From assembly GCA_002215645.1 (NCBI GenBank), contig NGFI01000004.1, forward strand, positions 185,933 to 249,932: DNA of 64,000 nucleotides. The letters are read 5' to 3'. Positions 11,618-27,930 of the stretch are shown in pieces (position 1 is the first letter of the stretch; each line of letters opens with the position of its first letter). This stretch comes from Gemmatimonadetes bacterium 2013_60CM_65_52. Its GTDB lineage: Bacteria > Gemmatimonadota > Gemmatimonadetes > Gemmatimonadales > Gemmatimonadaceae. Both the position numbers and the translations under genes were made by a program. The notes under the pieces were generated by a model. The model made no database searches, was not told the DNA's origin, and saw only the letters and a list, made by a program, of their open reading frames with translations.

Positions 11618-11671
11618 GTTTCGGGCCCTTGCGTCGGGTGCGGTTGAGCATTTTCACATTCTTTGACTTGA

Positions 11672-12102
11672 ACGATCCGAAACACCGTCCGGGAAGCACT
11701 GATAAACGCAGTCGCGCACGCCGACTACTCGCACCGCGGCGCGCCTTTTTTGATGACCGACTCGAGATCGAGAATCCGGGGTTGCTCCCCTCCGGCCTCA
11801 CGGTCGAAGATCTCAAGCGCGGGGTGTCGAAGCTGCGCAATCGCGTCATCGGCCGCGTCTTCCACGCACCCGGTCTGATCGAGCAGCGGGGGAGCGGCGT
11901 TCAGCGGATGATCGTCGCGTGCCGCGAAGTGGGGTTGGCGCTGCCGCGGCTCGAAGAAATCGCTACACGCTTCCGGGTGACCATCTACACAGAGCGCGTG
12001 TCGCAACCATTGGTCGAGACGACGGACCAGACGATCCTGGACGAACTCTCGGACGGTGAGGCCGACTGACGAGCGAGATCGCCGCGGTCATTTGCCTCGC
12101 CT
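11672..12102 (+). pseudogene. Decayed fragment of AlbA_2/Schlafen-type ATP-binding regulator (central/C-terminal part)
   Basis: Remnant of an ATP-binding DNA-binding regulator (AlbA_2 domain followed by a HATPase_c_4-like domain). Frame 2 encodes VREALINAVAHADYSHRGAP (11687-11746). After a small deletion/frameshift near 11746, frame 1 continues with FDDRLEIENPGLLPSGLTVE, then SKLRNRVIGRVFHAPGLIEQ and RGSGVQRM, to a stop at 12069. A second shift near 12063 reveals LTSEIAAVI in the third frame. The normal N-terminal half (AlbA_2 and the linker) and the final winged-helix segment are missing here. Fragments matching the part before and the part after this piece occur at 19771-20097. Confidence 0.8.
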
Positions 12103-12126
12103 TCCTTGGTACTTTGGGTGAGCCTT

Positions 12127-13800
12127 TTACTCTCGCAAGGCATACTTCTCAGAGTACGCCCGCAAGAACACTTCATCCTGGCACAGGCAACGCCCCGACG
12201 AGAGTTTGGCTGCCGGAGAATTCACCTCCGCCACAGTATTTCCATCAACTGTTAGCCGAAGCAGATCGATCTCCGAACGCGCAGGAAGTCGCGGAGCACG
12301 AAGCCCACCAGCGTCGCTGACGAGCTCCGCGGCGAGAAGGATGCCCGCGAGCGCTGACTGGAAGGCCATTGGTACTTCCGCAGGGCGCCCGTTCGCGAGA
12401 CCGCCACCAAGCCTGAACACGAGGCCACCGCACAAGGCGCCCACATAAAACTCATCGAGACTCGCATTTTCGAACCTGAACAGTTCGTGAGGCTCGATTG
12501 AGCGGCGCGCAGCGATGCGTTCGATGAATGCGCGTCCTACTGGCCCGCCGCTATGTAAAAGCACTCGTACTTCCATGAGTTCGTCAACGGTCGTACAGCC
12601 CAACGCTTCGGCATACAGCTGATCTCGATTCTTGGTTGGTCCAGTGGGGTGGTAGAGACACGCCACACAAGGCCCGTCGCCAATGAACGTGTGACGGGAC
12701 ACGCCAAGATTCTCCGGTTGAGTCCACGCATTCGCAATCCATCGGGGCAGCGCAGCTTGCACAGCTATGCGATCCTCGGCGCTGTCAAGGGCAAGGAGTA
12801 CTCGCTCCAAACGGTAGTTCGCGCGCTCATTCAAGTACGCCGCCCACGACTCTGGGTGCCCGAGGGCGACAACATCGTTACCTGTCGTGGTTACTGCGGC
12901 CATTTCCTCGGTGGCCATTTCAACTTTTGTCCGACCGACGGCTCCCTGATGGGAAAGCACATATCTCTGCACGTTGGTGAGATCCACCATCTCGGGATCT
13001 ATGAAGTGTAGAGTGCCATGAAGCGAAGGAGTTCGGGATAGAGCCCATACCACTGCATTGCCAATCGCGCCGACGCCGACCAGAAATGTTTCTCCTATCG
13101 AGACGTACGGAGGCTCAGTCCTCTCACCGGCAGGATGCGCCAAAGCGTCCCGCGTCAGTTTCAGGTCGACGACCGAGAAGCAAAGCGTTCCACCATCCCC
13201 ACGCGCGCTCAGTCCGGTTCCGGTATCGGTATCAAGGAAGTCGCGAAATACGGCCTGAAAAACAGCAGAGGCACCGAAACAAGCCGCAGCCCCGGCCCCG
13301 TAAGGATTCTCCGTCTGCCCAGATCCAACCGGGTCGACATTTGAAATGGATGCTAGCCACTCCTGCGACCCGATGTAAAACTGTTGTTGAAGTATCGACG
13401 TTTCACTGACGTACGAGGGTTCCGTCGGCGTCTGGCCAATTACCAGGAGCGCGGTAGCTCCTTGAATCTTGGAATCGATCTCAATGAGCGGATTGATTCC
13501 GCTTGCCCTGTTGCTCAGGCGCTCTCTCAGAGCATGCTGCTTCCCAGCAAGTTCACCTGAAGCGAAGTTCGTGCTATCCGCAGCTAGAGGTGCCAAGGAG
13601 ATACGGGGATAGAGCCTGGCGAGAAGGTCAACGCATAGATCAAGTGTGCTTCGAGCTTCCGGAGAGGTTGCCGCGGAATAATCCCATGCGATTCCGACGA
13701 CGCGCGATAGCAGATGTGTGCGGATTGCTTCGCTGTTGGCGTTCTTCAGTAGCGATCCCGCGGACAGTGCGGCTTTGTCAAAGAAATTGGCGAGTGCCAC
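12127..13800 (-). CDS. ThiF/E1-like ubiquitin-activating-type enzyme
   Basis: Large E1-like enzyme, 557 aa from a GTG start two bases after the upstream JAMM gene. Expected role: adenylate the C-terminus of the neighbouring ubiquitin-like protein and pass it on as a thioester. The adenylation domain starts near residue 236: VGVGAIGNAV (GxGxxG at 242-247), HFIDPEMVDLTNVQRY (D268 and R279 in the expected nucleotide-binding positions), RTKVEMA (K292) and LLALDS (D339). Cysteines that could bind zinc or carry a thioester are C378, C381, C538 and C540 (GPCVACLYHP, GRCLCQDE). The first 230 residues are an unusual domain with TENPYGAGAAACFGAS near its end; no E2 active site is obvious there. Last gene of the array. 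Confidence 0.85.
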   Translation of the reverse strand: MALANFFDKAALSAGSLLKNANSEAIRTHLLSRVVGIAWDYSAATSPEARSTLDLCVDLLARLYPRISLAPLAADSTNFASGELAGKQHALRERLSNRASGINPLIEIDSKIQGATALLVIGQTPTEPSYVSETSILQQQFYIGSQEWLASISNVDPVGSGQTENPYGAGAAACFGASAVFQAVFRDFLDTDTGTGLSARGDGGTLCFSVVDLKLTRDALAHPAGERTEPPYVSIGETFLVGVGAIGNAVVWALSRTPSLHGTLHFIDPEMVDLTNVQRYVLSHQGAVGRTKVEMATEEMAAVTTTGNDVVALGHPESWAAYLNERANYRLERVLLALDSAEDRIAVQAALPRWIANAWTQPENLGVSRHTFIGDGPCVACLYHPTGPTKNRDQLYAEALGCTTVDELMEVRVLLHSGGPVGRAFIERIAARRSIEPHELFRFENASLDEFYVGALCGGLVFRLGGGLANGRPAEVPMAFQSALAGILLAAELVSDAGGLRAPRLPARSEIDLLRLTVDGNTVAEVNSPAAKLSSGRCLCQDEVFLRAYSEKYALRE

Positions 13801-13802
13801 AG

Positions 13803-14321
13803 TTACTCCTCGGTGATGTCAATCAGCGTCGCAGCCTCGAGCGCCGACAGCTTCTGCCATTGCGCATCTGGCCGCATGCGATATACGACCGCTGCTCCAA
13901 GAGAGAACTCGCTGGCCGCGTAGTCCGGTATCACGATGGAGAGACCGCCCTCACGGGTCATGACGGGAAAGTCCTCGTCGGTGTCCGAGTGATACGCCGC
14001 CGCGGGGTGACTGTGGAGTTGGGCAATGATGGTCATTCGGTGACTGTGCAGCCACACGTTCATCGCGAACAGTTCGTCACCCTCGATCAGCACGAGGCAT
14101 CCGCCGTCGAGACCACCGGCATGCTGCTTGGGTATGTAGGCGGCGCGGACTTCGAACTGCGTTCCGACCGGCTCGCCTACCCAGAACCCAACGCCCTCAT
14201 GGCCTCGTCGTCCACTTTGGCGAAGGAAGGCGTGTACGTCGTTCACGATCTCCCACGGGACTCGAATGCTTTGAATTGATTCAAGGCCTTCGGGGTCATT
14301 GCCTTGATCGGCGGCGGTCAT
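13803..14321 (-). CDS. JAMM/MPN (Mov34) family metallo-isopeptidase
   Basis: 172-aa zinc isopeptidase of the JAB/MPN superfamily, the group of eukaryotic Rpn11/CSN5 deubiquitinases and bacterial partners of ubiquitin-like proteins. The JAMM motif is complete: E42 in HEGVGFWVG, then QLHSHPAAAYHSDTDED with H103, H105, S112 and D115. The spacing of six residues between the second His and Ser is common in bacterial operonic JABs. The ATG at 14321 overlaps the upstream stop (ATGA), so it is coupled to the CEHH gene. Expected function: trim the C-terminal tail of the ubiquitin-like precursor and/or remove it from targets. The activity is inferred from motif and context. Confidence 0.9.
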   Translation of the reverse strand: MTAADQGNDPEGLESIQSIRVPWEIVNDVHAFLRQSGRRGHEGVGFWVGEPVGTQFEVRAAYIPKQHAGGLDGGCLVLIEGDELFAMNVWLHSHRMTIIAQLHSHPAAAYHSDTDEDFPVMTREGGLSIVIPDYAASEFSLGAAVVYRMRPDAQWQKLSALEAATLIDITEE

Positions 14322-14926
14322 GCGGGAGGCTCGCCCTGCTCGAAGCCGGCAACGTGATGGCCGATCGAGTAGTTCGAGATTGGCTGCACGCCGTACTGAT
14401 AAATGGTGTTGAGAATGTGAAAGAGCGTGCCCGCGCCAAGACCGCGGTGCAGCAGCCACGAGTCTCCAGTATGCGCAGGATGCTCGTGGTACTCCCGAAC
14501 GCCCGGAATGCAAAGAAACGGCACTTCGTCCGGACTGTGCGCCTGCATGAGAGGAATTGATCCCGAGAGCTGTGGCATGCCCGGCACTGCGAAGTTCACC
14601 ACCTGACGGCGTAGCAACGCGGTCGGCAAGTTGCGGTGACGATAGGGCTCGCGAGTGAACGGATCGACGAGTCTGACGGAAGGCGGCTCGAGGTCGTAAT
14701 TCGTGAAGTCACAATCGACGCCGCAGATGACAGCTGACGGACGAAGTTGTGCAGCAGCGAATATGACAAAGGCGCGCGGAAAGCTGGCCTCGACAAGCAA
14801 CCACCCGCGGCGGCGATGGTCGGCTTCCCCGCTCCGATAACCTGCGACTTCCGCGTCGAACTTCTCACGTGAGACCGCTGGGTCCACGACCTGTGATCGA
14901 GCGTCCGCCAGCACAGCCATGCTCAC
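14318..14926 (-). CDS. CEHH predicted metal-binding protein of ubiquitin-like operons
   Basis: 202-aa protein found, to my knowledge, almost only beside bacterial ubiquitin-like, E1-like and JAB genes, and known as the predicted metal-binding CEHH domain. The signature is visible: C139 (PFLCIPG), E148/H149 (REYHEHP), H152 and H160 (HTGDSWLLHR), followed by GLGAGTLFHILNTIYQYG. The preceding segment VDCDFTNYDLEPPSVRLVDP has the look of a ubiquitin-conjugating (E2) fold core, and no other E2 candidate exists in the array, so it may act as the E2 or a specificity factor (inference). The GTG at 14926 overlaps the upstream stop (GTGA); an ATG lies two codons in. Confidence 0.8.
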   Translation of the reverse strand: MSMAVLADARSQVVDPAVSREKFDAEVAGYRSGEADHRRRGWLLVEASFPRAFVIFAAAQLRPSAVICGVDCDFTNYDLEPPSVRLVDPFTREPYRHRNLPTALLRRQVVNFAVPGMPQLSGSIPLMQAHSPDEVPFLCIPGVREYHEHPAHTGDSWLLHRGLGAGTLFHILNTIYQYGVQPISNYSIGHHVAGFEQGEPPA

Positions 14927-15225
14927 CGAGGTGTCCCCGGCTCGCCCCTCGTTGCAACGATGGGAGCGCCGTTGACGCCCACGCGCAGCGTCAAGTACAG
15001 AATCACGTCGGCCGGAAAATGGAAATCACCCACTTTGCGCGACAGGTCCAAGGGCGTTCCCTTTGCGTCCTTGAGCTCCCAGTCGCTGAGTGAGCGCCCG
15101 CCGTTCTTGGTCTGCTTGAGGGCAAGCTCCGCAACCGTCCGAAGCGGGGTCTCCGGGTGGGCGTTGACCACGGTTTCCACACCGTTCACGACCACGACGA
15201 TGTGACTTTCAGTGAGCTTTGCCAT
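14923..15225 (-). CDS. DUF2604-type ubiquitin-like protein
   Basis: 100-aa beta-grasp protein matching the DUF2604 family of bacterial ubiquitin-like modifiers. Visible features: first beta-hairpin SHIVVVVNGVETVV, a helix LRTVAELALKQT, then SDWELKDAKGTPLDL and the closing strand VILYLTLRVGVNG. Family members as I recall them end shortly after this last strand in a small-residue motif. This one carries 14 further residues (APIVATRGEPGTPR) after G86, implying processing by the adjacent JAMM enzyme. A good Shine-Dalgarno (GGAG, nine bases upstream) supports the ATG at 15225. A 126-bp gap separates it from the ImmA/IrrE gene, so a separate promoter for the Ubl-CEHH-JAMM-E1 block is possible. Confidence 0.85.
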   Translation of the reverse strand: MAKLTESHIVVVVNGVETVVNAHPETPLRTVAELALKQTKNGGRSLSDWELKDAKGTPLDLSRKVGDFHFPADVILYLTLRVGVNGAPIVATRGEPGTPR

Positions 15226-15351
15226 GACGACGTTCTCCGGAGCAGGCGGCCTTTGCGCTTTGCGTCGCCGCGTTACTCCTTCATAGAACGGCGCATCTCC
15301 CTCGTCTGTCCACGGTTGCAGGTCGTACCTAGTCGACGCCGCTACCGATAA

Positions 15352-16128
15352 CTAGAACAGATCTTTGGTCGGCCTGCTCCCAATCGGCTGTATGTCCATG
15401 TCGATCGTGACGCGTCGGTTCGCGGCATCCTGGGACACGTCATACAACTTGCGCACTTTGTTGATCAGATCGGCGACTTCGTTGTGGGAACGAATGCCGT
15501 GTGGATGCCGTTCAGCCAGCATCTGTCTCATGCCGTCCAGCGGCATCAGGAACTCAGCGGCGAAGTCGTTTGCATCCAGTTCCAACTTTCCGGCCCTGGT
15601 CAGAGGTCCATTGTTCGCAAGAGTACAGCGCCCAAACCTCAGAAGGCGAGGGGCGATATCCGCACCAAAAAGATCGCCATGAAATGCCTCTCTCCTCTGG
15701 AGATGCGGCAACACTTCGCCAACAAGATGGCCGATTTCGTGTGCTACGGTCCAGCGCTGGCGCTGAAGTGGGTCACCGTTCTTGACAAATATCCAACGGT
15801 GATCGCCCGCGGCAGTGACGTACAGGCCGCCTGCGAGTGGATCATCATTGGGTTCCTCCTTGTCAATATTCAGCCCCCACTTCGCGGCGAGGTATTCGAG
15901 TGCCATGCGATCGGTGAGGTCGTCGAGGAAGCAAGTACTGCAGTCGAGGTAAGACTTGGCGACGCTAATAGGATCCGCAGCCTCCGTTAAGACAGAGACA
16001 TGACCCAGCGAGTGCAAGCGCCTTCGCAGCCCGTTCACAATGTCGCGAGCTTTTTTCGAGCGCCAGCTGTTCTTCACAGCGCGACTCGCGTCTTTGGATT
16101 CAGAGATTCTCGTTCTCATGGGAGACAT
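15352..16128 (-). CDS. ImmA/IrrE family zinc metallopeptidase
   Basis: 258-aa peptidase of the M78 (ImmA/IrrE) family, whose members cleave repressors or anti-regulators after stress or DNA damage. The catalytic motif RWTVAHEIGHLVG gives H130, E131 and H134, and the downstream ELDANDFAAEFLMP is the conserved third-ligand helix. The N-terminal 50 residues are basic and helical. The ATG at 16128 was chosen because AGGAG lies ten bases upstream; it overlaps the end of the zf-HC2 gene by 29 bases, so the two are coupled. By analogy with ImmA and IrrE it may cut a regulator in the same operon, with the zf-HC2 protein the closest candidate (inference). Confidence 0.85.
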   Translation of the reverse strand: MSPMRTRISESKDASRAVKNSWRSKKARDIVNGLRRRLHSLGHVSVLTEAADPISVAKSYLDCSTCFLDDLTDRMALEYLAAKWGLNIDKEEPNDDPLAGGLYVTAAGDHRWIFVKNGDPLQRQRWTVAHEIGHLVGEVLPHLQRREAFHGDLFGADIAPRLLRFGRCTLANNGPLTRAGKLELDANDFAAEFLMPLDGMRQMLAERHPHGIRSHNEVADLINKVRKLYDVSQDAANRRVTIDMDIQPIGSRPTKDLF

Positions 16129-17584
16129 CGTCTGGACACTCCTGGTTTGAGTCAGAGTCACTCGGCAAGGGCGGGAACTCGTGACGCGCGGCGCGTTTAT
16201 CCAGGATTTCACCTTTGAGCTTCCCGCTCTCCTGAATGCAGAAATAGTAAACGTCGCACGCGAGAGAGAAGATGGCATTCCGCTCCGCCTGCGTGAGACC
16301 CGGTTCGCGAGCAAGAAACGTCGCACGCCAATCAGTCTCCCACAGTGCGACGATGCTGTATTCCTCAAAAGGCGCAAGCTGTCCCCACACAAGCGACTGA
16401 TGATTGGTCTTGGACCAGTGCTCAAGACGATTATCGTGTTTGCACCGTAGGAACTCGCGAATCTCTTCTGCAAAGTTGCTCGTCACGCGGTGTGTCTCGG
16501 AGGCGTCCGCCTGGGCGCGGTCTTTCCCATAGACCGCTTTTTGCTCGGCGACACGCCTGAGCGGCGTCGCGTCTTCGACGCGATCGGGCAAAGATGCCGC
16601 TGGGCGTGAAACGCGACCCGAATGTCCGATAGAGGGAATTCGATCTAGCCAGGGATTTGTTTGCCTGGGCGACTTCGGCTCTCCTATTTCCCCGGTCGGA
16701 CTTGTTGGGGAATTGGTTGGCCCATCGTCGATCTTGCTGTCCTCGAGAGTGTCATCGGAGAAATCCGCGCGGCACACCGCGTCCATATAACTGGATAGCC
16801 GCGCACCGAGGAGCTGCCACTCTGGTCGCGTGCGAATCTCCGCATGGCCGAGTCTGCCCACGACGAGGTCTGAGGGAGGAGCTTCCGATCGGCTCCAGGC
16901 CCGCTCGACACGCAACAATTCCTCCCCTGAGCGAGTCGGTAGCCGGCCAATGCAGCGGTTGAGGCAACTTGCGTGGCCACTTCGCTCCATGTCCACGTGA
17001 ATCACGGCAGACCCACCAATCCCGCTATCGGCAGATCTAAAAATGAGAGACCACTCCGCGGCCAGTCGCTCATCTTCAGTCACTGGCGTGAGATTGACCA
17101 TCTGGCCACCGTCAGAGGCAGACACAAACTGATCAAGCACGAGTACCAGTAGTGCGAAGGAAGCCATATCGCGAGACGCCAAAGAGTCATCTTCCACGTG
17201 CTCATCAAGTGCTCGCGCCTGACGAGTACCTGGCCGCGATTCTAGCTCCACTGCCCAAATCTGGCCAACTTCGGGACGGGGACGTGGGTCAGCGAGCGCA
17301 TGGGCGACTCGGTTCCGCTGCTCGGACAAGTGCTTCCTGACGCTCTCTGATCTCTCGGGTGCCCTGAGACTTACGTACGAGAGAAACCCTCTGGCCAAAT
17401 AGTCCTGGAGGGCGTCCGATGCTGACGAGTCTTCGGTTCGAAGGCTCGCGAGCGAGCGCGCGCAATCAGGGCACGTTTGCACGTGCGACTCAATATTGGC
17501 AGAAAGCTCAGGGTCGGCCTTTCCGCTTTCGTACGCGACGAGTTCGTCGGCTGGCGGGCAATGGCTATGCGGGAATCTACGCAT
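16100..17584 (-). CDS. zf-HC2 (anti-sigma-type zinc finger) protein with PemK/MazF-like region
   Basis: 494-aa protein. The N-terminus is a zf-HC2 finger as in anti-sigma factors: C9, then IESHVQTCPDCARSL with H34, C38 and C41. A middle region (about residues 110-260) begins PEVGQIWAVELE and runs through a hydrophobic strand ALLVLVLDQF and EDERLAAEWSLIF, resembling the barrel of PemK/MazF-type proteins and the first gene of this operon. Then comes a Ser/Pro-rich linker and a helical C-terminal region containing IVALWETDWRATFLAREPGL. There is no transmembrane segment, so it is cytoplasmic. The ATG at 17584 has GGAGGG ten bases upstream. Placed after a sigma-like gene, it is the obvious anti-sigma candidate; the remaining domains are of unknown function. 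Confidence 0.7.
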   Translation of the reverse strand: MRRFPHSHCPPADELVAYESGKADPELSANIESHVQTCPDCARSLASLRTEDSSASDALQDYLARGFLSYVSLRAPERSESVRKHLSEQRNRVAHALADPRPRPEVGQIWAVELESRPGTRQARALDEHVEDDSLASRDMASFALLVLVLDQFVSASDGGQMVNLTPVTEDERLAAEWSLIFRSADSGIGGSAVIHVDMERSGHASCLNRCIGRLPTRSGEELLRVERAWSRSEAPPSDLVVGRLGHAEIRTRPEWQLLGARLSSYMDAVCRADFSDDTLEDSKIDDGPTNSPTSPTGEIGEPKSPRQTNPWLDRIPSIGHSGRVSRPAASLPDRVEDATPLRRVAEQKAVYGKDRAQADASETHRVTSNFAEEIREFLRCKHDNRLEHWSKTNHQSLVWGQLAPFEEYSIVALWETDWRATFLAREPGLTQAERNAIFSLACDVYYFCIQESGKLKGEILDKRAARHEFPPLPSDSDSNQECPDDVSHENENL

Positions 17585-17725
17585 TACGAACAAGCCCTCC
17601 GCTGGAGTCGCTGGTACGATCTGCATCGATCGGCGAACTGTTTCCGCTCACCGCATTGTCCCATTCAAGAACTGCGCAACGCATCATTTTGTCCATAAGT
17701 GACGGAAATCGAACCGCCGGGAGAG

Positions 17726-18763
17726 CTATCCGACGTCAGTGAGGAGCCCGCGAATTCTTCCAAGTACCTGTTCCTGATCCTCACTCCCGGCCAGTGCAAG
17801 CTCGAGAAACACCGAGCGAATATTGCGCTGCTCATTGTTCACGAGTGACTTTGATACCCCCAAGCGCTCCGCCAGAGCCCTAGTAGCGAGTGCCGGCTCG
17901 TCAATCATCAACTTGAGAATCGCCCGCTGAGCGCCGCTGAGGCTGTCGAGGGCCTGTCGCGCCAGTTCGTCGGCGATGATGGGATCCAGCGATGTCGGCA
18001 AGGAGACATGCAGGATTTGATCAATACTGACCGATGGACTGTCAGGAGCTTCCTCGTGGAGGACGAATCGCTGTTCAATGGCGACCATGATCTGCGCACC
18101 GGTCCACAGGCGGCCAGTACCTGAAACCAGCGAAAAGGAGATCTCAGCCAGATCGGACGACGCGAGTCCAGGTGATTTCCGGCTCCCCGTGGAGTAGTTC
18201 GTCAGGGCAATCTTCCGAGGTATGAATTTCACGGCTGTGCGAATCGACGCCGAATCCATGATCGGCGGAGGTTCCTCGACCCATACGTCGAGGCCATATG
18301 CGGCCCGGGCTCCGATTCCGGCGAGCGGCCGAAGACGTGCATCGTCGGCCAACACATCAGCCAGGCGACGGCGAACGTTCGAGAGCGTGTCACGGCGGCG
18401 TTCGGAGATCGTGAAGTTCAGCAGAGCTTTTTCCAGATATCGCTTCACGCCGGTCGGAAGGATCGCGACAGTCAGTGCTCTTTCAATGGCTCCAGCCTCG
18501 ACGCCGCGCCGTTGAATGAAATCCTGAACGAGGTCCCAGATACCGACCGCATCCCAGACTCCACTGGGCGAGTAGACGCTGGCCGCGTACCGAGGTTTGA
18601 TCCGCGCGACAACACAGGCGGTGAGCACGTGCGTCAACCAGGGCCACAACCAACCCTCGAGTTCCCGCGTCGCAAATTCGCGACGCAAGTCATCGATTGA
18701 TGGTTGTGCCGGTACAGCGGCGGCGAGCCCGGCGATTGGAAGGTCGCGCATTCGTCGGGTCAC
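17726..18763 (-). CDS. Divergent sigma-70-family-like regulator
   Basis: 345-aa protein with the outline of a sigma factor. Residues 57-130 resemble sigma region 2: WDAVGIWDLVQDFIQRRG (core-binding helix), then YLEKALLNFTISERRRDTL (the Arg-rich promoter-melting helix). The C-terminal 70 residues are a helix-turn-helix like region 4.2: LSGAQRAILKLMI and ALAERLGVSKSLVNNEQRNI. Between them lies about 140 residues of unrelated sequence, longer than the linker of ordinary ECF factors. The start is a GTG overlapping the upstream stop (GTGA); an ATG at 18751 is the alternative. The next gene has a zf-HC2 finger, the usual anti-sigma fold. Assignment is by pattern only and could also be a sigma-like activator. 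Confidence 0.62.
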   Translation of the reverse strand: MTRRMRDLPIAGLAAAVPAQPSIDDLRREFATRELEGWLWPWLTHVLTACVVARIKPRYAASVYSPSGVWDAVGIWDLVQDFIQRRGVEAGAIERALTVAILPTGVKRYLEKALLNFTISERRRDTLSNVRRRLADVLADDARLRPLAGIGARAAYGLDVWVEEPPPIMDSASIRTAVKFIPRKIALTNYSTGSRKSPGLASSDLAEISFSLVSGTGRLWTGAQIMVAIEQRFVLHEEAPDSPSVSIDQILHVSLPTSLDPIIADELARQALDSLSGAQRAILKLMIDEPALATRALAERLGVSKSLVNNEQRNIRSVFLELALAGSEDQEQVLGRIRGLLTDVG

Positions 18764-19281
18764 CCCGGCACCGGCGGGTAAGGGTCAGCCAAACGCGCGC
18801 CCGCATGGGCGAGGATTGCAGAGATTGCCGGTTCGGGAAGCCAGCCGAGCGGCTTGCATCGGATCAGGTCTGCAATCCTTATCACGAGACGATTATCAAG
18901 TTCAAAGATACCGTCCTTGTTGAACGCCGGCAGACTGCCTTTCGAGCTGAAGATCCATTTTCTTGTCCGGAGGAGCGCTTGAGCAGCCGGACTACCGGGA
19001 GTGCCCCACTCGGGCTTCCAGCTCAACCGCGCGGACAGCGCTACGTGCTGCTCCAAGGCAATGGCTGACCGGGCGTGAATGGGAGAAACAATCACCAACA
19101 CCATCGGGCGATTGAGTTTGCCAGCCATTGTCCGACGACTCACTCCATCATCCACGGCGAAGACTTGGCCCCGGACGAGCAATGGACGAAGGCGTAAGAG
19201 TCGATCTTCGTCTGAATCAACCCCTTCCATAGACACTTTCCGCACAGCGGTGGCAGCATCGCCATAGGAGCGAGAGGTCAT
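18760..19281 (-). CDS. PemK/MazF-like barrel protein, first gene of the array
   Basis: 173-aa cytoplasmic protein. LLVRGQVFAVDD, followed by KLNRPMVLVIVSP, matches the first strands of the PemK/MazF/CcdB-like barrel (RGxI...RPVLVIS). A final part FELDNRLVIRIADLIRC, then helical PEPAISAILAH, resembles the end of these proteins. It is longer than typical MazF (about 110 aa), with an N-terminal extension of 35 residues, and has no antitoxin partner gene. The ATG at 19281 has AGGTGA nine bases upstream. The same strand pattern recurs in the zf-HC2 protein two genes on. It may be an RNase-type effector, an inert barrel used for binding, or something else; function is not established. Confidence 0.5.
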   Translation of the reverse strand: MTSRSYGDAATAVRKVSMEGVDSDEDRLLRLRPLLVRGQVFAVDDGVSRRTMAGKLNRPMVLVIVSPIHARSAIALEQHVALSARLSWKPEWGTPGSPAAQALLRTRKWIFSSKGSLPAFNKDGIFELDNRLVIRIADLIRCKPLGWLPEPAISAILAHAGARLADPYPPVPG

Positions 19282-19770
19282 CGATTGTGCTCACCTGACC
19301 CCTCGTCGCTGGAGTGAGTGCGTTGGATTGATCGGCCATGGGTTATCTGTGGCATCGGCGGAGCCCCGACTGGTCACAAGCGGAATCGACACCGTATTTG
19401 AACCACCCATCGGCCACTCTCGTCCACGCGTCCGGCGAACCGCCAGGGTTTGCAACGTTTGTGTAAGAAGGCCGTTGCGTCAGCTCGGGCGTATGCGAAC
19501 CGCTCGGCGCTAGCGAGTATTGCAGGTTATCTTGGATCATCTCTCGCGGAGCAGAGCATGCGGCGCGCTCTCAAGTCCGCCTGAGCGCGTGTACGAACTC
19601 CATCTCGCCCGCTCGGCGCGCAAGGAGCTCCAGCTCGAAGAACGGGTCGGAAGCCTTCATTCCCGATTCCATCACGCTGCGGCTCGCGCCCGGTATCGAG
19701 ATCCTCCTGTGGTCCCGCACCAAGCCCATCGCGGCTCGGGTCCACCCCGCCCTCACCACTTCAACAACCG
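19282..19770 (+). other. Intergenic stretch between the array and the decayed regulator; no gene recognised
   Basis: Short open frames occur on both strands but none has a recognisable domain or good initiation site. VYELHLARSARKEL (19588-19629, plus) faintly resembles the start of a RelE/ParE-type toxin but loses the pattern immediately. The promoter of the minus-strand array probably lies in the first 100 bases; I could not pick a convincing -35/-10 pair. Confidence 0.4.
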
Positions 19771-20097
19771 ATGGCCGACCTCGACTCGGAAGCCCTCGAC
19801 TTCCGAGCAGCTTCCGAGTCGTTCGCGTCGGTTCCCAGGCTCACCAGAGATAACCTCGTCAAATTGCACCTGATGATGAACCATCAAGGGCGTCGAGCGC
19901 CAACCGTTTGAGGAATGCTCTACTTCGCCCGCGACCGATCGTCGTCCTCTGCAGATGCATGGATCCCGGCGCGCCGCTGTGGCCTCACGTCGCGCGCTAC
20001 GCGCACGCGACTCGCCCGGCTGGTCGAGAGCAGTCTCCTGGGCGAAGTTTGTACCGGGCCGCAGGATCCGAAACGACGCTACTTCCGCATGCAGTAA
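19771..20097 (+). pseudogene. Decayed AlbA_2/Schlafen-type regulator (N-terminal linker joined to extreme C-terminus)
   Basis: Single-frame remnant of the same family as the fragment at 11672. DLDSEALDFRAASESFA and LTRDNLVKLHLMMNHQGRRA lead to APTV, then an in-frame TGA at 19909-19911 where the family has Gly (PTVGG; one-base change GGA to TGA), then GMLYFARDR and DAWIPARR. Directly afterwards comes the terminal winged-helix piece LTSRATRTRLARLVESSLLG and TGPQDPKRRYFRMQ. The entire ATPase-like central part is deleted, and that is the part preserved at 11672-12102. It ends 16 bp before hsdM. Confidence 0.8.
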
Positions 20098-20113
20098 TCG
20101 AGGACGAACAACG

Positions 20114-22567
20114 ATGGCATTGAAGAAGTCGCAACTCTACTCCTCACTCTGGCAGTCGTGCGACGAGCTGCGCGGCGGCATGGACGCGTCGCAGTACAAG
20201 GACTACGTCCTGACGTTGCTGTTCATGAAGTACGTCTCGGACAAGTACGCCGGCAAACCGGGCGCGCTGATCGTCGTCCCGAAGGGCGGCGGCTTCGCCG
20301 ACATGGTGGCACTCGCAGGCGACAAGGAGATCGGCGACAAGATCAACAAGATCATCGGCAAACTCGCCGAGGCGAACGATCTCAAGGGAGTCATCGACCA
20401 GGCCGACTTCAACGACGAGGGCAAGCTCGGCGCCGGCAAGGAAATGCAGGACCGCCTGTCGAAGCTGGTGGCGATCTTCGATGGTCTCGACTTCCGCGCC
20501 AACCGCGCCGAGGGCGACGACCTGCTCGGCGACGCCTATGAGTACCTGATGCGCCACTTCGCCACCGAGAGTGGCAAGAGCAAAGGGCAGTTCTACACGC
20601 CGGCCGAAGTGTCGCGCATCATGGCGCAGGTCATCGGGCTGGATCAGGCGGTCACGATGGATCAACCGACGGTGTACGATCCGACCTGCGGCTCCGGCTC
20701 GTTGTTGATCAAGGCGGCGGACCAGGCTGCGACTACGAAGCTTGCGATCTACGGCCAGGAGATGGACGTCGCCACGTGGGCGCTGGCGCGCATGAACATG
20801 ATTCTGCACGGCCATCCCACCGCGGAGATCTGGCGCGGGAACACGCTCGCGGCGCCGCACTTCAAGAACAGGGACGACAGTCTCAGGACGTTCGACTTCG
20901 CGGTTGCCAATCCGCCGTTCTCGTCGAAGGCGTGGTCGAGCGGTCTCGATCCGGCGCAGGACGAGTTCAAGCGGTTCGAGCTCGGGGTCCCGCCGGCGAA
21001 GAATGGCGACTACGCTTTTCTGCTGCACTTGGTCAAGTCGCTCAAGAGCAAGGGCAAGGGCGCGATCATCCTGCCGCACGGCGTGCTGTTCCGCGGCAAC
21101 AAGGAAGCGGACATCCGCAGGAATCTCGTGAGCCGCGGCCTGATCAAGGGGATCATCGGCCTGCCGGCGAACCTCTTCTACGGCACCGGCATCCCGGCGT
21201 GCATCGTGGTGATCGACAAGGAGCACGCGCATGCGCGGACGGGCATCTTCATGATCGACGCGAGCAAAGCTTTCCTCAAGGACGGGAACAAGAATCGCCT
21301 GCGCGCGCAGGACATCCACAGGATCGTGGATGTGTTCAACCGGCAGATCGAGCTGCCGCGCTACTCGCGCATGGTACCGGTGGCGGAGATCGCGGACCCT
21401 GCCAACGATTACAACCTCAACATCCCACGGTACGTCGACTCCAGCGAGCCCGAGGACCTGCACGACCTCGACGCGCACCTGAACGGCGGCATCCCCAACG
21501 GCGACATCGATGCGCTCGGCGACTATTGGAGCGTTTTTCCAGGGGTGCGTGAGGCGCTGTTCAAGAGCAACGGTCGCGCAGGGTACAGCGACGCGGTGCT
21601 CGACGCGTCGCGGGTGAAGCCAGCGATTCTCGAACACGCCGAATTCAAGGCGTTCGCCGCGCGAGTCGCCGCCGTGTTCCAGGGATGGCGCACGGCGCAC
21701 GAGCCAAGGCTCAAAGCCCTGAAAGTGAACGACCTTCCGAAGGCGCTCATGAATACGCTTTCGGAGGATATCCTCTCGCACTTCGCCGGCTTGCCGCTGA
21801 TCGATCGGTACGACGTCTATCAGCGGTTGATGGACTACTGGGCGGAGGTGATGCAGGACGACGTGTATCTGATCGCGGCCGACGGCTGGGTGGAGGCGGC
21901 GAAGCCGCGCGGCATCGTCGAGGACAAGGAGCGGAAGATCAAGGAGACGCCCGATCTCGTCATCAAGCGCAGGAAGTACAAAATGGATCTCGTTCCGCCA
22001 GCCTTGGTCGTCGCATTCTGGTTCGCAAAGGAGCAGGCCGCGATCGAGGCACTTCAGGCCAGACACGAGACGGCCGCGCGCGAGCTGGAGGAGTTCGTCG
22101 AGGACAACACAGGCGATGAAGGACTTCTCGCCGATGCGGTGAACGAAAAAGGCAAGGTCACCAAGGGCGGCGTGAAAGATCGGCTCAAGGGCATCGAAGA
22201 CGAGCCGGAAAGCGAGGAGGAGCGTGATGTGCTCGCGCGTTGCCTGGCCCTAATCGAAGCCGAGTCGGGAGCGAGCAAGGCGGTCAGCGAAGCGCAGGCC
22301 GCGCTGGATGTGAAGCTGCTGGCCCGGTACGGAAAGCTCACCGAGGCCGAGATCAAGGCGCTCGTGATCGAGGACAAGTGGCTCGCGAGTCTGCGCGTGG
22401 CGATCGAGGGCGAGGTGCAGCGGCTCACCCAGCAACTCGCGGGGCGGGTGAAGGAACTCGAGGAGCGATACTCGCAGCCGCTATCGGCGCTGGAGCAGGA
22501 ACTGGAGGCGTTCAGCGCCAAGGTCGAGGGGCACCTCACGAAGATGGGGCTCGTGTGGCATGAATAG
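20114..22567 (+). CDS. hsdM: Type I restriction-modification DNA methyltransferase subunit
   Basis: N6-adenine methyltransferase subunit of a type I restriction-modification enzyme, 817 aa. The N-terminal HsdM bundle (LYSSLWQSCDELRGGMDASQ, then FMKYVSDKYAG) is followed by the AdoMet motif VYDPTCGSGSLLI and the catalytic VANPPFSSKAW (NPPF). It is about 300 residues longer than a typical HsdM. The extension (about residues 500-817) is charged and helical, ending in a probable coiled coil (LTQQLAGRVKELEERYSQPL). The ATG at 20114 begins the conserved N-terminus; a longer reading upstream enters the pseudogene. The stop overlaps hsdS (ATGAATAG). It forms an M2S complex with HsdS that protects host DNA. 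Confidence 0.95.
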   Translation: MALKKSQLYSSLWQSCDELRGGMDASQYKDYVLTLLFMKYVSDKYAGKPGALIVVPKGGGFADMVALAGDKEIGDKINKIIGKLAEANDLKGVIDQADFNDEGKLGAGKEMQDRLSKLVAIFDGLDFRANRAEGDDLLGDAYEYLMRHFATESGKSKGQFYTPAEVSRIMAQVIGLDQAVTMDQPTVYDPTCGSGSLLIKAADQAATTKLAIYGQEMDVATWALARMNMILHGHPTAEIWRGNTLAAPHFKNRDDSLRTFDFAVANPPFSSKAWSSGLDPAQDEFKRFELGVPPAKNGDYAFLLHLVKSLKSKGKGAIILPHGVLFRGNKEADIRRNLVSRGLIKGIIGLPANLFYGTGIPACIVVIDKEHAHARTGIFMIDASKAFLKDGNKNRLRAQDIHRIVDVFNRQIELPRYSRMVPVAEIADPANDYNLNIPRYVDSSEPEDLHDLDAHLNGGIPNGDIDALGDYWSVFPGVREALFKSNGRAGYSDAVLDASRVKPAILEHAEFKAFAARVAAVFQGWRTAHEPRLKALKVNDLPKALMNTLSEDILSHFAGLPLIDRYDVYQRLMDYWAEVMQDDVYLIAADGWVEAAKPRGIVEDKERKIKETPDLVIKRRKYKMDLVPPALVVAFWFAKEQAAIEALQARHETAARELEEFVEDNTGDEGLLADAVNEKGKVTKGGVKDRLKGIEDEPESEEERDVLARCLALIEAESGASKAVSEAQAALDVKLLARYGKLTEAEIKALVIEDKWLASLRVAIEGEVQRLTQQLAGRVKELEERYSQPLSALEQELEAFSAKVEGHLTKMGLVWHE

Positions 22568-23909
22568 CGACGCGGTACAGGTCAATGACGGCGCGGTGTG
22601 CTACCTCGTAGGCGTCGATGCCCATATGCCGCCGGCGGGCTACAGGAGCACGGAGGTTGGAGTCATCCCGCATGATTGGACGGTGGGGACACTGGGCGAT
22701 ACAATCTCTGCTCTGCAAGCTGGAGTTAGCGTCAAGTCAACTGCAGAGGACTTCGTTAATGGGGTTCCAGCCATACTCAAGACCTCTTGTATTGAATCCG
22801 GATCATTCTTTCCGGATGAGGCAAAACCTATTGCGCCTAAGGATCGAAAGCGGGCGACACTCAATCCTCGCCGAAGCGCGATCCTCATCAGCCGGATGAA
22901 CACAATCGACCTGGTCGGCGAGTGCGGGTTTGTGGATCAAGACTACCCAGAGTTGTTCATTCCTGATCGCCTTTGGATGACCCACCTCCGCTCATCGACG
23001 GGGGTTTCGCCACGCTGGCTCACTTACGTACTGAGTAGCGCGCCGTACCGCCGCCAACTGCAAACCATCGCTAGCGGTACGAGCGATAGCATGAAGAACA
23101 TCGCGAAGGGATCACTTCTCGGGTTGCAGGTTGCATATCCTCCTCCTCCGGAGCAGCACGCCATCGCCGAGGCACTGTCGGACGTGGATAGGTTGCTGGG
23201 AACGTTGGAGGCGCTGCTGGCCAAAAAGCGGGCCATCAAGCAGGCCGCCATGCAGCAACTCCTCACCGGGAAGACGCGCCTGCCGGGCTTTGACGATGAC
23301 TGGAAGCGCGCGACTGTCGGCGCTGAATTTCACATTGAACTCGGGAAAATGCTGGATGCAGAAAAGAATGTCGGGGTTCCTAAACCCTTCCTGGGGAATC
23401 AAGCGGTTCAGTGGGGATTCATTGATACTAGAGAGCTGGGTACGATAAAGCTTACTCCGTCGGACCTCCATCGTTACCGGCTCGAACACGGCGATCTGCT
23501 GGTTTGCGAGGGCGGCGAGATCGGCCGGGCCGCAATCTGGACAGGCGAGCTCTCGGAGTGCTACTACCAAAAGGCATTGCATAGGCTGCGACCGAAGAAG
23601 GATTACGATCCGCGCCTGATGCTCTATTTGTTTCGCCATTTTTCAGCTACCGGAGCTCTCCTCAACTACGCGACGCAAACAAGCATTGCTCATCTGCCAA
23701 AGGAAAAAATTGAAACGATTCCTATCGTCCGTCCTTCCTCCAGCGAACAAGCCGCCATCGCTACCGTCCTCTCCGACATGGACGCCGAGATCGCCGCGCT
23801 CGAAGCACGCCGCGACAAGACCCGCGCCATCAAGCAAGGCATGATGCAGCAACTCCTCACGGGCCGCGTGCGGCTCCTGAAGCCGACATCAGCGAACGCC
23901 AGCGCGTGA
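22560..23909 (+). CDS. hsdS: Type I restriction-modification specificity subunit
   Basis: DNA-recognition subunit, 449 aa, with two target recognition domains (about residues 25-205 and 235-420), each followed by a conserved helical spacer: EQHAIAEALSDVDRLLGTLE, then AIKQAAMQQLLTGKTRLPGF, and EQAAIATVLSDMDAEIAALE, then AIKQGMMQQLLTGRVRLL. The two repeats set the spacing of the bipartite target site. GYRSTEVGVIPHDWTVG opens the first domain. The first ATG overlaps the hsdM stop by eight bases and was taken as start; an ATG at 22626 just before the conserved opening is possible. Base composition in the recognition domains is more AT-rich than in hsdM and hsdR, as expected for a fast-exchanging module. 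Confidence 0.95.
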   Translation: MNSDAVQVNDGAVCYLVGVDAHMPPAGYRSTEVGVIPHDWTVGTLGDTISALQAGVSVKSTAEDFVNGVPAILKTSCIESGSFFPDEAKPIAPKDRKRATLNPRRSAILISRMNTIDLVGECGFVDQDYPELFIPDRLWMTHLRSSTGVSPRWLTYVLSSAPYRRQLQTIASGTSDSMKNIAKGSLLGLQVAYPPPPEQHAIAEALSDVDRLLGTLEALLAKKRAIKQAAMQQLLTGKTRLPGFDDDWKRATVGAEFHIELGKMLDAEKNVGVPKPFLGNQAVQWGFIDTRELGTIKLTPSDLHRYRLEHGDLLVCEGGEIGRAAIWTGELSECYYQKALHRLRPKKDYDPRLMLYLFRHFSATGALLNYATQTSIAHLPKEKIETIPIVRPSSSEQAAIATVLSDMDAEIAALEARRDKTRAIKQGMMQQLLTGRVRLLKPTSANASA

Positions 23910-26900
23910 ACACCGTCGGCCAGCGCGAAATCCTCTCTCAGCAACGCGTGATCGCGTTTTTCGAGGATGCGCTCGGCTACGCCTACCTCGGCCACTGGAA
24001 GGACCGCGACGGCAACAGTAACGTCGAAGAGGCCGAGTTGACCAAATGGTTGAAGCGACAGGGCCACAGCGACAAGATCATCAGCAAGGTGCTCTTCGAG
24101 CTGAACAAGGCCGTCGCGCTCGGCGGCAGCAAGACGCTGTACGACGCTAACCGCGAAGTCTACGGGCTCCTGCGCTACGGCGTGAAGGTCAAGCCCGATG
24201 TCGGTGAGCAGAACGTCACCGTTTGGCTCATCGACTGGACCAACCCCGGCAACAACGACTTCGCCATCGCCCAGGAGGTGACGGTGTTCGGCGTCAACGA
24301 CAAGCGCCCGGACATCGTCCTTTATGTCAACGGCATCGCACTCGGCGTGCTGGAGCTGAAGCGCTCGATCATATCCGTCACCGAGGGCATCAGGCAGAAC
24401 CTCGACAGCCAGAAGAAGGAGTTCGTCGAGCCATTCTTCACCACGGTGCAACTGCTGATGGCCGGCAACGACACCGAGGGGCTACGCTACGCGGTGATCG
24501 ACACGCCGCAGAAGTACTGGCTGCGCTGGAAGGAGCTCGAAGCGCATCCGGCCGCCGGCGACAACCCGCTGCTGCGGGAGCTGGGGCAGCTCTGCAACAA
24601 GGCTCGAGTACTGGAACTGTTGCACGACTTCCTCGTGTTCGACGCAGGCATCAAGAAGATCTGCCGCCACAACCAATACTTCGGCATTCGCGCGGCGCAG
24701 GCGCGCGTAAAGCGGCGCGAGGGCGGCATCGTCTGGCACACCCAGGGCAGCGGCAAGAGCCTGATGATGATCTGGCTCGCCAAATGGATCCGCGAACACG
24801 TGACGAATGGGCGCGTCCTCATCATCACGGACCGGACCGAGCTCGATGAGCAGATCGAGAAGTTCTTCCTCGGTGTCGATGAGGAGATCTACCGCACCAG
24901 GAGTGGCGCCGATCTGGTGCGGGTGCTCAACGCCAGCGAGGAATGGCTCACCTGCTCGCTGATTCACAAGTTCGGAGCGTCGGATGAAGGCGACATCGAC
25001 GACTTCCTCGCCGACATCCAGGGCCATCTGCCGAAGGACTTCCGCGCCAAGGGCGAAATCTTCGTCTTCGTCGACGAGTGCCACCGCACCCAGTCCGGCA
25101 AGCTGCACGACGCAATGAAGGCGCTGCTCCCCGGCGCGATGCTGATCGGATTCACGGGGACGCCGCTGCTCCGGGACGATAAACGGCGCTCCATCGAAAC
25201 CTTCGGGCCGTACATCCACACCTACAAGTACGATGAGGCCGTGCGCGATGGCGTCGTGCTCGACCTGCGCTACGAAGCGCGCGATATCGATCAGAGCATC
25301 ACGTCGCCGGCGAAGGTCGATCAGTGGTTCGAGCTCAAGACTCGGGGGTTGACCGACGTCGCGAAGGCGCAGCTCAAGCAGCGCTGGGGCACCATGCAGA
25401 AAGTGCTTTCCGCGCGCGACCGCCTCGAGAAGATCGTTGCCGACATCCTCATGGACATGGCGACACGTGACCGCCTCAGCAGCGGGCACGGGAACGCGAT
25501 CCTCGTGTCCGGCAGCATCTACTCGGCCTGCCGGTTCTTCGAGATGTTCCAGCAAACCGACTTGGCCGGCAAGTGCGCGATCGTCACGTCCTACCGGCCC
25601 GCACCGGCGGACATCAAGGGCGAAGAGAGCGGCGAAGGTCTGACGGAACGGCTCCGGCAATACGATGTCTACCGAAAGATGCTCGCCGCGCATTTCAACG
25701 AGCCGGAAGACACGGCGATGCACAAGGTCGAGCTGTTTGAGAAGGATGTGAAGAAGCGCTTCATCGAGCAGCCCGGACAGATGAAGCTGTTGATCGTGGT
25801 GGACAAGCTGCTCACCGGATTCGACGCGCCGCCCGCGACGTACCTCTACATCGACAAGCAGATGCAGGACCATGGTCTGTTTCAGGCAATCTGCCGGGTG
25901 AACCGCCTGGACGGTGACGACAAGGAGTACGGGTACATCATCGACTACAAGGATCTGTTCCGGTCGCTGGAACAGTCCATCACCGACTACACCGGCGAGG
26001 CGTTCGCCGGATACGACCGGGAAGACGTCGAGGGGCTGCTCAAGGACCGGCTCCAGCAGGGGCGGGAGCGACTCGAGGAAGCGCGCGAAGCGGTGAAGGC
26101 GCTGTGCGAACCCGTCGAGCCGCCGCGCGACAGCGCAGCGTATCTACGGTATTTCTGCGCCGCGGAGAGCGGGAATGCGGCTCAACTCAAGGAGAACGAG
26201 CCCAAGCGCGTTGCCCTCTACAAGCTGGCCGCCGCGTACCTTCGAGCCTACGCCAACCTCGCGAACGAAATGCGCGAGGCCGGCTACTCGGATGCCGACG
26301 TGCAGGAGATCAAGCACGAGGTGGATCACTACGAGAAGGTCCGCGAAGAGGTCAAGCTGGCGAGCGGCGACTACGTGGACATGAAGATGTTCGAGCCGGC
26401 GATGCGCCACCTGCTCGATACGTACATCCGCGCGGAGGAGAGCGAGAAGCTCTCGGCATTCGATGATATGACGCTGGTGCAGTTGATCGTGGAGCGTGGG
26501 GCGCGGGCCGTCGACATGTTACCGGACGGCATCCGCCGGAACGAAGGTGCGATGGCGGAGACCATCGAGAACAACGTTCGGCGGTTGATCATCGACGAGA
26601 TGGCCGTCAATCCGAAGTACTACGAGCGGATGTCGGAGCTGCTCGACGCGCTGATCGCCGAGCGCAAGCGGCAGGCGCTGGACTACAAAGCGTATCTGGC
26701 TCGCCTCGTCGAGCTGACGAAGCAGGTGAGCAATCCGGCGATGCAGACGACCTATCCTCTTGGGATCAACACCGCACCGCTCCGCGCCCTGTTCGACAAT
26801 CTTCAAGGCGTGGCCGGTCTGGCTGGTATGCTCAGTCGGCTCGGCGTGGTGGCCGAGGTCCGCGTTGGCTCTACCGCCGCCGAACGGGCGGCGTTTGCGC

Positions 26901-27055
26901 TCGACAAGTCAATTCGCGCGGTGAAGAAGGCGGATTGGCGGGGCAATCGATTCAAGGAGCGCGAAGTTCGGAATGCGGTTCAGTCAGTGCTCGGCGACGA
27001 TGGAGCGCTGGTCGACACCGTGTTCGAAATCGTGAAGAATCAGCGTGCGTACTAG
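23906..27055 (+). CDS. hsdR: Type I restriction enzyme endonuclease/translocase subunit
   Basis: Motor and nuclease subunit, 1049 aa. The N-terminal PD-(D/E)xK nuclease shows RPDIVLYVNG and LGVLELKRS (D136, E150, K152). The SF2 translocase follows with Walker A WHTQGSGKSLMMIW (about 279-286), VDECHRTQSGKLH (motif II, about 389-401), IGFTGTPLL (motif III) and VDKLLTGFDAPP (motif V). The C-terminal helical domain binds the methylase core. The start is a GTG overlapping the hsdS stop (GTGA), so all three subunits are coupled. All visible catalytic motifs are intact, suggesting an active system that cleaves unmodified incoming DNA. Confidence 0.95.
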   Translation: MNTVGQREILSQQRVIAFFEDALGYAYLGHWKDRDGNSNVEEAELTKWLKRQGHSDKIISKVLFELNKAVALGGSKTLYDANREVYGLLRYGVKVKPDVGEQNVTVWLIDWTNPGNNDFAIAQEVTVFGVNDKRPDIVLYVNGIALGVLELKRSIISVTEGIRQNLDSQKKEFVEPFFTTVQLLMAGNDTEGLRYAVIDTPQKYWLRWKELEAHPAAGDNPLLRELGQLCNKARVLELLHDFLVFDAGIKKICRHNQYFGIRAAQARVKRREGGIVWHTQGSGKSLMMIWLAKWIREHVTNGRVLIITDRTELDEQIEKFFLGVDEEIYRTRSGADLVRVLNASEEWLTCSLIHKFGASDEGDIDDFLADIQGHLPKDFRAKGEIFVFVDECHRTQSGKLHDAMKALLPGAMLIGFTGTPLLRDDKRRSIETFGPYIHTYKYDEAVRDGVVLDLRYEARDIDQSITSPAKVDQWFELKTRGLTDVAKAQLKQRWGTMQKVLSARDRLEKIVADILMDMATRDRLSSGHGNAILVSGSIYSACRFFEMFQQTDLAGKCAIVTSYRPAPADIKGEESGEGLTERLRQYDVYRKMLAAHFNEPEDTAMHKVELFEKDVKKRFIEQPGQMKLLIVVDKLLTGFDAPPATYLYIDKQMQDHGLFQAICRVNRLDGDDKEYGYIIDYKDLFRSLEQSITDYTGEAFAGYDREDVEGLLKDRLQQGRERLEEAREAVKALCEPVEPPRDSAAYLRYFCAAESGNAAQLKENEPKRVALYKLAAAYLRAYANLANEMREAGYSDADVQEIKHEVDHYEKVREEVKLASGDYVDMKMFEPAMRHLLDTYIRAEESEKLSAFDDMTLVQLIVERGARAVDMLPDGIRRNEGAMAETIENNVRRLIIDEMAVNPKYYERMSELLDALIAERKRQALDYKAYLARLVELTKQVSNPAMQTTYPLGINTAPLRALFDNLQGVAGLAGMLSRLGVVAEVRVGSTAAERAAFALDKSIRAVKKADWRGNRFKEREVRNAVQSVLGDDGALVDTVFEIVKNQRAY

Positions 27056-27773: not shown

Positions 27774-27930
27774 TCGGGCCTCGGATGCCGTGGTACCGTG
27801 CGCCGGGCGCTATACGGCGCGGCCTCTATTCTACGCGCGGCACGCTTCCGTTCCGCCATGCCTTCCTAGAGCCAAGCCCCTCTCGCGGTCCAGGCGTTCC
27901 GATTGGCCCCGCGACTGAGCAAATTGCGCC

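What the first reader, a model, noticed from the sequence alone, without database searches (positions are those of the whole stretch)
12127..15225. Ubiquitin-like conjugation cassette: DUF2604 Ubl, CEHH protein, JAMM peptidase, E1-like enzyme
Four tightly coupled genes (overlaps or a 2-bp gap) encode a beta-grasp modifier, a CEHH metal-binding protein, an intact JAMM isopeptidase and an E1-like activator. The Ubl/E1/JAB set is established as a family of bacterial operons, and related Bil systems protect against phages. This particular version has no canonical E2 and is poorly studied as far as I know. Location beside a type I RM system supports a defence role (inference).
Basis: partly seen in the sequence, partly recalled or inferred. 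Interest (0 to 1): 0.88.

Follow-up and report, generated by a model that had tools for sequence, protein, structure and literature searches.

The report
Bacterial ubiquitin-like conjugation operon (BilABCD)
These four genes are a new copy of BilABCD, an already described bacterial protein-tagging pathway with a ubiquitin-like tag, an E1, an E2 and a tag-removing protease; the supposedly E2-less cassette has its E2 in the 'CEHH metal-binding' gene.

Summary
In detail: a tight minus-strand operon at 15225-12127 encodes a DUF2604 ubiquitin-like protein, a CEHH protein, a JAMM peptidase and an E1-like enzyme. The key interpretation, that there is no canonical E2, is wrong. All four proteins match the solved BilA, BilB, BilC and BilD of a bacterial E1-E2-Ubl system (PDB 8TYX/8TYY/8TYZ/8TZ0; E = 1e-16, 1e-49, 6e-33, 2e-105). 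The CEHH protein is the E2: its model matches eukaryotic E2s (Z about 9), and CEHH is the published BilB catalytic motif. Pfam's 'Prok-E2_C' is the first half of the E1. All catalytic residues are present, including the modifier's glycine (G86), here hidden behind a 14-residue tail that BilC would cut off. The operon keeps its gene order from Bacteroidota to Alphaproteobacteria and is group 6c of Iyer et al. (2006). It sits, with a type I restriction system, in a 16.6-kb insert absent from five sister species. The only unusual part is next door: a CapP-like peptidase coupled to zinc-finger and sigma-like genes instead of the usual CapH repressor. Verdict: real, intact, a new member of a known kind; modest interest.

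The parts
14923..15225 (-). bilA: single ubiquitin-like (DUF2604, beta-grasp) modifier, 100 aa; predicted mature C-terminus Gly86, followed by a 14-residue tail APIVATRGEPGTPR
   Evidence: Pfam DUF2604 2.4e-21; PDB 8tyx_A/8tyz_B Ubl(BilA) 1.1e-16; G83 and G86 invariant in 12 aligned sequences, whose tails after that Gly are 0-9 residues in the relatives
14318..14926 (-). bilB: E2-like conjugating enzyme (Pfam Metal_CEHH), 202 aa; CEHH = C139, E145, H147, H152
   Evidence: Metal_CEHH 1.3e-61; 8tyz_C E2(BilB) 1.5e-49; model pLDDT 81, Z 20.4 to 8tz0_C and Z up to 9.5 to eukaryotic E2s; CEHH invariant in 14 loci
13803..14321 (-). bilC: JAMM/JAB deconjugating and processing peptidase, 172 aa; E42, H103, H105, S112, D115
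   Evidence: 8tyx_B DUB(BilC) 6.1e-33; PADLOC BilC 3.7e-18; residues invariant in 8 aligned sequences
12127..13800 (-). bilD: E1-like activating enzyme, 557 aa: N-terminal inactive adenylation half (Pfam 'Prok-E2_C'), active adenylation domain, helical CYS insert with C457 (= published Cys417), Cys4 site C378/C381/C538/C540
   Evidence: 8tyz_A E1(BilD) 2.4e-105 over residues 2-554; invariant residues; model matches 8tz0_A (TM 0.82 on the query) and then UBA6, UBA7, UBA3
15352..16128 (-). Possible regulator: CapP-like ImmA/IrrE (M78) metallopeptidase, 258 aa from ATG 16128, 126 bp upstream of bilA, same strand
   Evidence: Peptidase_M78 3.9e-12; PADLOC capP 6.7e-17; HEIGH motif. Comparable peptidases lie upstream of other Bil operons
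16100..17626 (-). Possible regulator: zf-HC2 anti-sigma-like protein, 508 aa, 3' end overlaps the M78 gene
   Evidence: zf-HC2 0.0022 and ChrR-type anti-sigma 0.0075, both below cut-off; hits in 395 genomes of the phylum are short, weak and mostly to the zinc-finger region
17726..18763 (-). Possible regulator: protein with C-terminal sigma-70 region 4-like HTH, 345 aa
   Evidence: HTH_24 7.8e-5; sigma70-ECF 0.013, below cut-off; no full-length relative found
11618..28241 (.). Inserted island (about 16.6 kb) holding the Bil operon, the M78 module and a type I restriction-modification system
   Evidence: In five same-genus species the flanking genes are 20-140 bp apart; island G+C 0.607 against 0.644 and 0.656 in the flanks
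19955..27773 (+). Type I restriction-modification system hsdM-hsdS-hsdR plus YgjP-like metallopeptidase
   Evidence: N6_Mtase 2.6e-100, Methylase_S 4.8e-17, HSDR_N 2.3e-37, YgjP-like 3.4e-58

Best explanation
A BilABCD operon of the single-Ubl kind. BilC (JAMM) trims the 14-residue tail after Gly86 of BilA; BilD (E1) adenylates the exposed glycine and loads it on Cys457; it is passed to Cys139 of BilB (the CEHH protein, an E2), with His152 in the active site; BilB attaches BilA to lysines of target proteins without a known E3, and BilC can remove it again. The operon came into this genome within a mobile defence island and probably protects against phage, as experimentally studied Bil operons do. 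Identity and catalytic anatomy are shown by homology here; the reaction steps are inferred from the solved and assayed relatives; targets and phage defence are not shown for this copy.
For: Matches to all four solved Bil proteins. Same ABCD order at the 13 GTDB loci, several members of the phylum and rhizobial plasmids. Invariant catalytic residues in all four proteins. Literature: BilB Cys138/Glu144/His146/His151 and BilD Cys417 (PMC11354881) fall on the window's C139/E145/H147/H152 and C457. The BilB model matches eukaryotic E2s and the BilD model matches eukaryotic E1s. Invariant BilA Gly86 with variable short tails supports C-terminal processing. Empty site in five sisters, restriction system and sporadic spread (4 of 99 relatives, 6 of 395 in the phylum) support a mobile defence island.
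Against: BilA ends VGVNG rather than the usual AGVGG or AGVAG, and its tail is the longest seen, so processing could be less efficient. No assay of this copy. No E3, substrate or phage data. Some relatives lack any tail, so processing is not universal.
Confidence: 0.94

Rival explanations
1. An E2-less conjugation system: the E1 alone charges targets and CEHH is a zinc-binding accessory protein.
For: Pfam still calls CEHH 'predicted metal binding'.
Against: CEHH matches a solved E2 (1.5e-49), has the UBC fold, and its C/E/H/H are the published catalytic and structural residues of that E2, not a metal site.
Confidence: 0.02
2. The E2 is the N-terminal 'Prok-E2_C' domain of the E1, as proposed in 2006, and CEHH does something else.
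For: Prok-E2_C hit 1.6e-24; prediction in PMC1779556.
Against: That region is matched over its whole length by the solved BilD E1, whose N-terminal half is described as an inactive adenylation domain; no cysteine in this stretch is invariant across the 12 aligned E1s (C174 is only nearly invariant), while C457 is.
Confidence: 0.02
3. Same BilABCD biochemistry, but the physiological role is a DNA-damage or general stress response rather than phage defence, with expression set by the CapP-like module.
For: A CapP-like peptidase lies upstream, and CapP- or WYL-type regulators sit next to several Bil loci; the 2026 paper notes the line between immune and stress pathways is blurred and that related Bub operons have no shown phage protection (PMC13373217).
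Against: Location in an insert with a type I restriction system; Bil operons are listed among known anti-phage pathways (PMC13373217).
Confidence: 0.25
4. A decayed, non-functional cassette left in an island.
For: A recG-C-like fragment lies just downstream; at least one related locus looks broken (bilD in two pieces in L011).
Against: All four frames open, overlaps intact, every invariant catalytic residue kept.
Confidence: 0.03

Closest known systems
Solved BilABCD, PDB 8TYX, 8TYY, 8TYZ, 8TZ0 (bacterial E1-E2-Ubl and Ubl-DUB complexes)
   Same: Single Ubl, E2 with CEHH, JAMM DUB, E1 with two adenylation halves and CYS insert; long matches for all four
   Different: Roughly 40-50% identity; the window Ubl ends VNG with a 14-residue tail; E1 longer by insertions around residues 73-95 and 190-230
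Group 6c operon of Sinorhizobium fredii pNGR234a (Iyer et al. 2006, PMC1779556)
   Same: DUF2604, Metal_CEHH, Mov34/MPN, 'E2 ligase fold family C' E1 in the same order; E1s 43% identical
   Different: Plasmid-borne next to a VapC module; no M78 peptidase or restriction genes annotated nearby; the 2006 paper assigned the E2 to the E1's N-terminus
Bil operons with more divergent BilB (e.g. Bradyrhizobium plasmid L021, G048, G079)
   Same: BilB-BilC-BilD order and the C-terminal CEHH part; CapP-like peptidase and HTH upstream
   Different: BilB shorter and under 30% identical; the gene in the bilA position there does not match DUF2604
Bub (bacterial ubiquitination-like) and type II CBASS Cap2/Cap3
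   Same: Bacterial Ubl-type conjugation with deconjugating protease and, for Bub, the same kinds of regulators
   Different: Other E1-E2 architectures (own knowledge); window E1 scores far below cut-off against the 6A-MBL Cap2/3 model and only weakly against PADLOC E1-E2 models

Membership tests
BilABCD | Four-gene order Ubl-E2-JAMM-E1 in one operon | tested here: met
   same order at relatives
BilABCD | BilB-type E2 with catalytic Cys within CEHH | tested here: met
   C139/E145/H147/H152 invariant; 8tyz_C 1.5e-49; literature motif
BilABCD | E1 with inactive plus active adenylation halves and CYS insert with catalytic Cys | tested here: met
   Full-length match to 8tyz_A; C457 invariant; model
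BilABCD | JAMM peptidase active site | tested here: met
   E42, H103, H105, S112, D115 invariant; 8tyx_B 6.1e-33
BilABCD | Ubl with a C-terminal glycine reachable after processing | tested here: met
   Gly86 invariant in 12 aligned sequences; the cleavage itself is not testable here
BilABCD | BilA with two tandem Ubl domains (ISG15-like form) | tested here: not met
   100-aa protein with one DUF2604 domain; a single-Ubl form is also solved under the name BilA, so this feature defines one Bil type only and does not exclude membership
BilABCD | Conjugation of Ubl to target lysines | not testable with these tools
   Needs biochemistry
BilABCD | Protection against phage | not testable with these tools
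   Only context evidence: island with type I restriction system
CapH+CapP regulator | M78/ImmA-IrrE peptidase of the CapP kind | tested here: met
   PADLOC capP 6.7e-17, HEIGH motif
CapH+CapP regulator | Partner CapH repressor (small HTH_3-type protein) | tested here: not met
   None of the three genes upstream matches capH or HTH_3/HTH_31; the HTH present is sigma region 4-like, weak. So the module is filed as CapP-like only

The most novel reading that the evidence does not exclude
The Bil operon here is switched on by a new kind of regulatory module, in which the CapP-like peptidase cuts an anti-sigma-like zinc-finger protein and so frees a dedicated sigma-like factor, in place of the usual CapH repressor.
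Probability: 0.15. Interest if true: 0.5.

Novelty: new member of a known kind. Interest (0 to 1): 0.27.

Why it matters
It corrects two misleading database labels: 'Metal_CEHH' is a ubiquitin-conjugating enzyme and 'Prok-E2_C' is part of an E1. It adds an intact, chromosomally inserted Bil operon with a clear empty site to a lineage where such operons are rare. It also shows that Bil operons across phyla carry varied regulators upstream (CapP-type peptidases, WYL proteins, small HTH and MarR-like proteins), which gives a testable route to what triggers them.

Tried and rejected
E2-less system: rejected by the E2 structure match. Prok-E2_C as the E2: rejected by the full-length E1 match. Plasmid or phage origin of this copy: no nucleotide match in plasmids, no BilB protein match in phage records; rhizobial plasmids carry protein-level relatives only. 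Conservation of the neighbouring zf-HC2, sigma-like and 173-aa genes with Bil: no match at the Bil loci searched, none in plasmids for the first two, and only short weak hits in 395 genomes. Repeats at the island ends: no shared 11-mers. No paper found on CapP with anti-sigma partners (the search terms also drew many unrelated papers). The primary papers on the solved system are not in the library, so details come from a review and a 2026 paper that cites them. A first paper search with DUF2604/CEHH was mostly noise. The organism was not identified by name.

Full report
What is there. The JAMM ORF reported from 14513 is just the longest open frame; ATG 14321 is the natural start.

What the proteins are. 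Pfam gives DUF2604 (2.4e-21), Metal_CEHH (1.3e-61), Prok-JAB (1.2e-4, below its cut-off), and Prok-E2_C (1.6e-24) plus ThiF (1.7e-11). PADLOC gives BilB 2.6e-5, BilC 3.7e-18 and BilD 1.5e-8. The decisive test was against solved structures: the four proteins match 8tyx_A Ubl(BilA) 1.1e-16, 8tyz_C E2(BilB) 1.5e-49, 8tyx_B DUB(BilC) 6.1e-33 and 8tyz_A E1(BilD) 2.4e-105, each over most of its length. Foldseek titles 8tyz and 8tz0 'Structure of a bacterial E1-E2-Ubl complex'.

The missing E2. The CEHH protein is the E2. Its AlphaFold model (mean pLDDT 81) aligns to 8tz0_C with Z 20.4 and then to a long list of eukaryotic ubiquitin-conjugating enzymes at Z 8-9.5 over about 115 residues. A review of the solved system states that BilB's catalytic Cys138 is part of the CEHH motif (Cys138, Glu144, His146, His151; PMC11354881); the window has C139, E145, H147, H152 with identical spacing, invariant in 14 loci. 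The Pfam name 'predicted metal binding' is therefore misleading. Likewise 'Prok-E2_C' covers the N-terminal part of the E1, and the review describes the N-terminal half of BilD as an inactive adenylation domain; the whole BilD model matches eukaryotic E1s UBA6, UBA7 and UBA3 after the bacterial E1. The published catalytic BilD Cys417 corresponds to C457 in the window, invariant in 12 E1s, together with an apparent Cys4 site C378/C381/C538/C540.

The modifier's tail. In 12 aligned sequences the last invariant BilA residue is a glycine (Gly86 in the window), in the context AGVGG or AGVAG in most relatives. After it come 0-9 residues in relatives and 14 in the window (APIVATRGEPGTPR). Four of the aligned relatives end exactly at the glycine, so they need no trimming; the window copy would. 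In three further loci (L005, L006, L025) the bilA frame runs straight on into bilB, giving a Ubl-E2 fusion with the glycine motif at the joint, so a cut there would be needed too. The solved BilC complex and the review support BilC as the trimming enzyme. JAMM residues E42, H103, H105, S112, D115 are intact.

Distribution. Bil loci of this kind were found in Bacteroidota, Acidobacteria, Actinobacteria, Eremiobacterota, Dormibacterota, Gamma- and Alphaproteobacteria and on rhizobial plasmids, including S. fredii pNGR234a. That plasmid is the prototype of group 6c in Iyer et al. 2006 (PMC1779556), so this operon type has been on record for twenty years. In the window's own lineage it is sporadic: 4 of 99 relatives and 6 of 395 genomes of the phylum have CEHH. 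No phage record has it.

The island. In five species of the same genus the two genes that flank the region in the window (ORF 11129-11617 and the CtaG gene 28242-29087) are neighbours, 20-140 bp apart. The window has 16.6 kb between them, with lower G+C (0.607 against 0.644 and 0.656). The insert holds Bil, a complete type I restriction-modification system with a YgjP-like peptidase, a recG-C-like fragment, and four further genes. This is best read as a defence island acquired in this lineage, which makes a defence role plausible but does not prove it.

The neighbours. Directly upstream of bilA, same strand, lies a CapP-like M78 peptidase (PADLOC capP 6.7e-17), overlapping a zf-HC2 anti-sigma-like gene, preceded by a sigma region 4-like HTH gene and a small unknown gene. 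At other Bil loci I found CapP-type peptidases, most with an HTH partner (L006 fused, L013, L024, L026, L021, L027, L028), WYL proteins (L010, L011), a small HTH (L008) and MarR-like proteins (L001, L009), divergent from bilA. Published work reports CapW or CapH+CapP next to 219 of 544 Bub operons and CapK+CapS next to five Bil operons, with CapP activated by single-stranded DNA to cut CapH (PMC13373217). The window lacks a CapH; whether its peptidase acts on the zf-HC2 or sigma-like protein is an open, testable idea, given low probability because those genes are not conserved elsewhere and the domain matches are weak.

Mechanism and status. Shown here: gene content, homology, intact active sites, island insertion. 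From literature on the solved relatives: processing, E1 thioester, E2 catalytic residues. Inferred: that this copy does the same and defends against phage. Novelty: a new member of a known kind. Single-Ubl Bil operons are, as far as I remember, called type II; that label was not checked here.

Noticed in passing
15352-19281: CapP-like M78 peptidase, zf-HC2 anti-sigma-like, sigma region 4-like HTH and a 173-aa gene without a family match form a co-directional string upstream of bilA; no CapH. Possible new regulatory module.
   Followed up: partly
11618-28241: 16.6-kb insert between two genes that are adjacent in five same-genus species: a clean empty site for a defence island. No shared 11-mer repeats at the ends.
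   Followed up: yes
L005 9674-10606, L006 9707-10576, L025 9514-10377 (minus): bilA and bilB are one open frame: a Ubl-E2 fusion with the AGVAG/GAGG/AGVGG glycine motif at the joint. If real, the modifier must be cut free from its own E2, as eukaryotic ubiquitin is cut from ribosomal-protein fusions.
   Followed up: partly
about 11740-12069: Fragment matching the C-terminal domain of putative ATP-dependent helicase RecG-like proteins (HATPase_c_4, 9.3e-23) without an upstream partner: remnant of a truncated gene.
   Followed up: no
L001 778-1365, L009 2211-2786, L012 1057-1662: Similar-looking proteins of 191-201 aa (MarR-like winged helix in the two scanned) encoded divergently upstream of Bil operons in an actinobacterial and two gammaproteobacterial MAGs: a candidate further class of Bil regulator.
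   Followed up: partly
L020 9368-10726: TIR-domain and caspase-family genes just downstream of the Rhizobium etli p42a Bil operon; possible linked effector pair.
   Followed up: no
L024 12614-13531: NYN-domain nuclease-like gene (6.7e-9) overlapping the end of bilD in a same-family genome (G034); possible accessory effector.
   Followed up: no
L011 11056-12617: bilD of Phenylobacterium sp. J426 appears split across frames, either a broken gene or a sequencing error.
   Followed up: no
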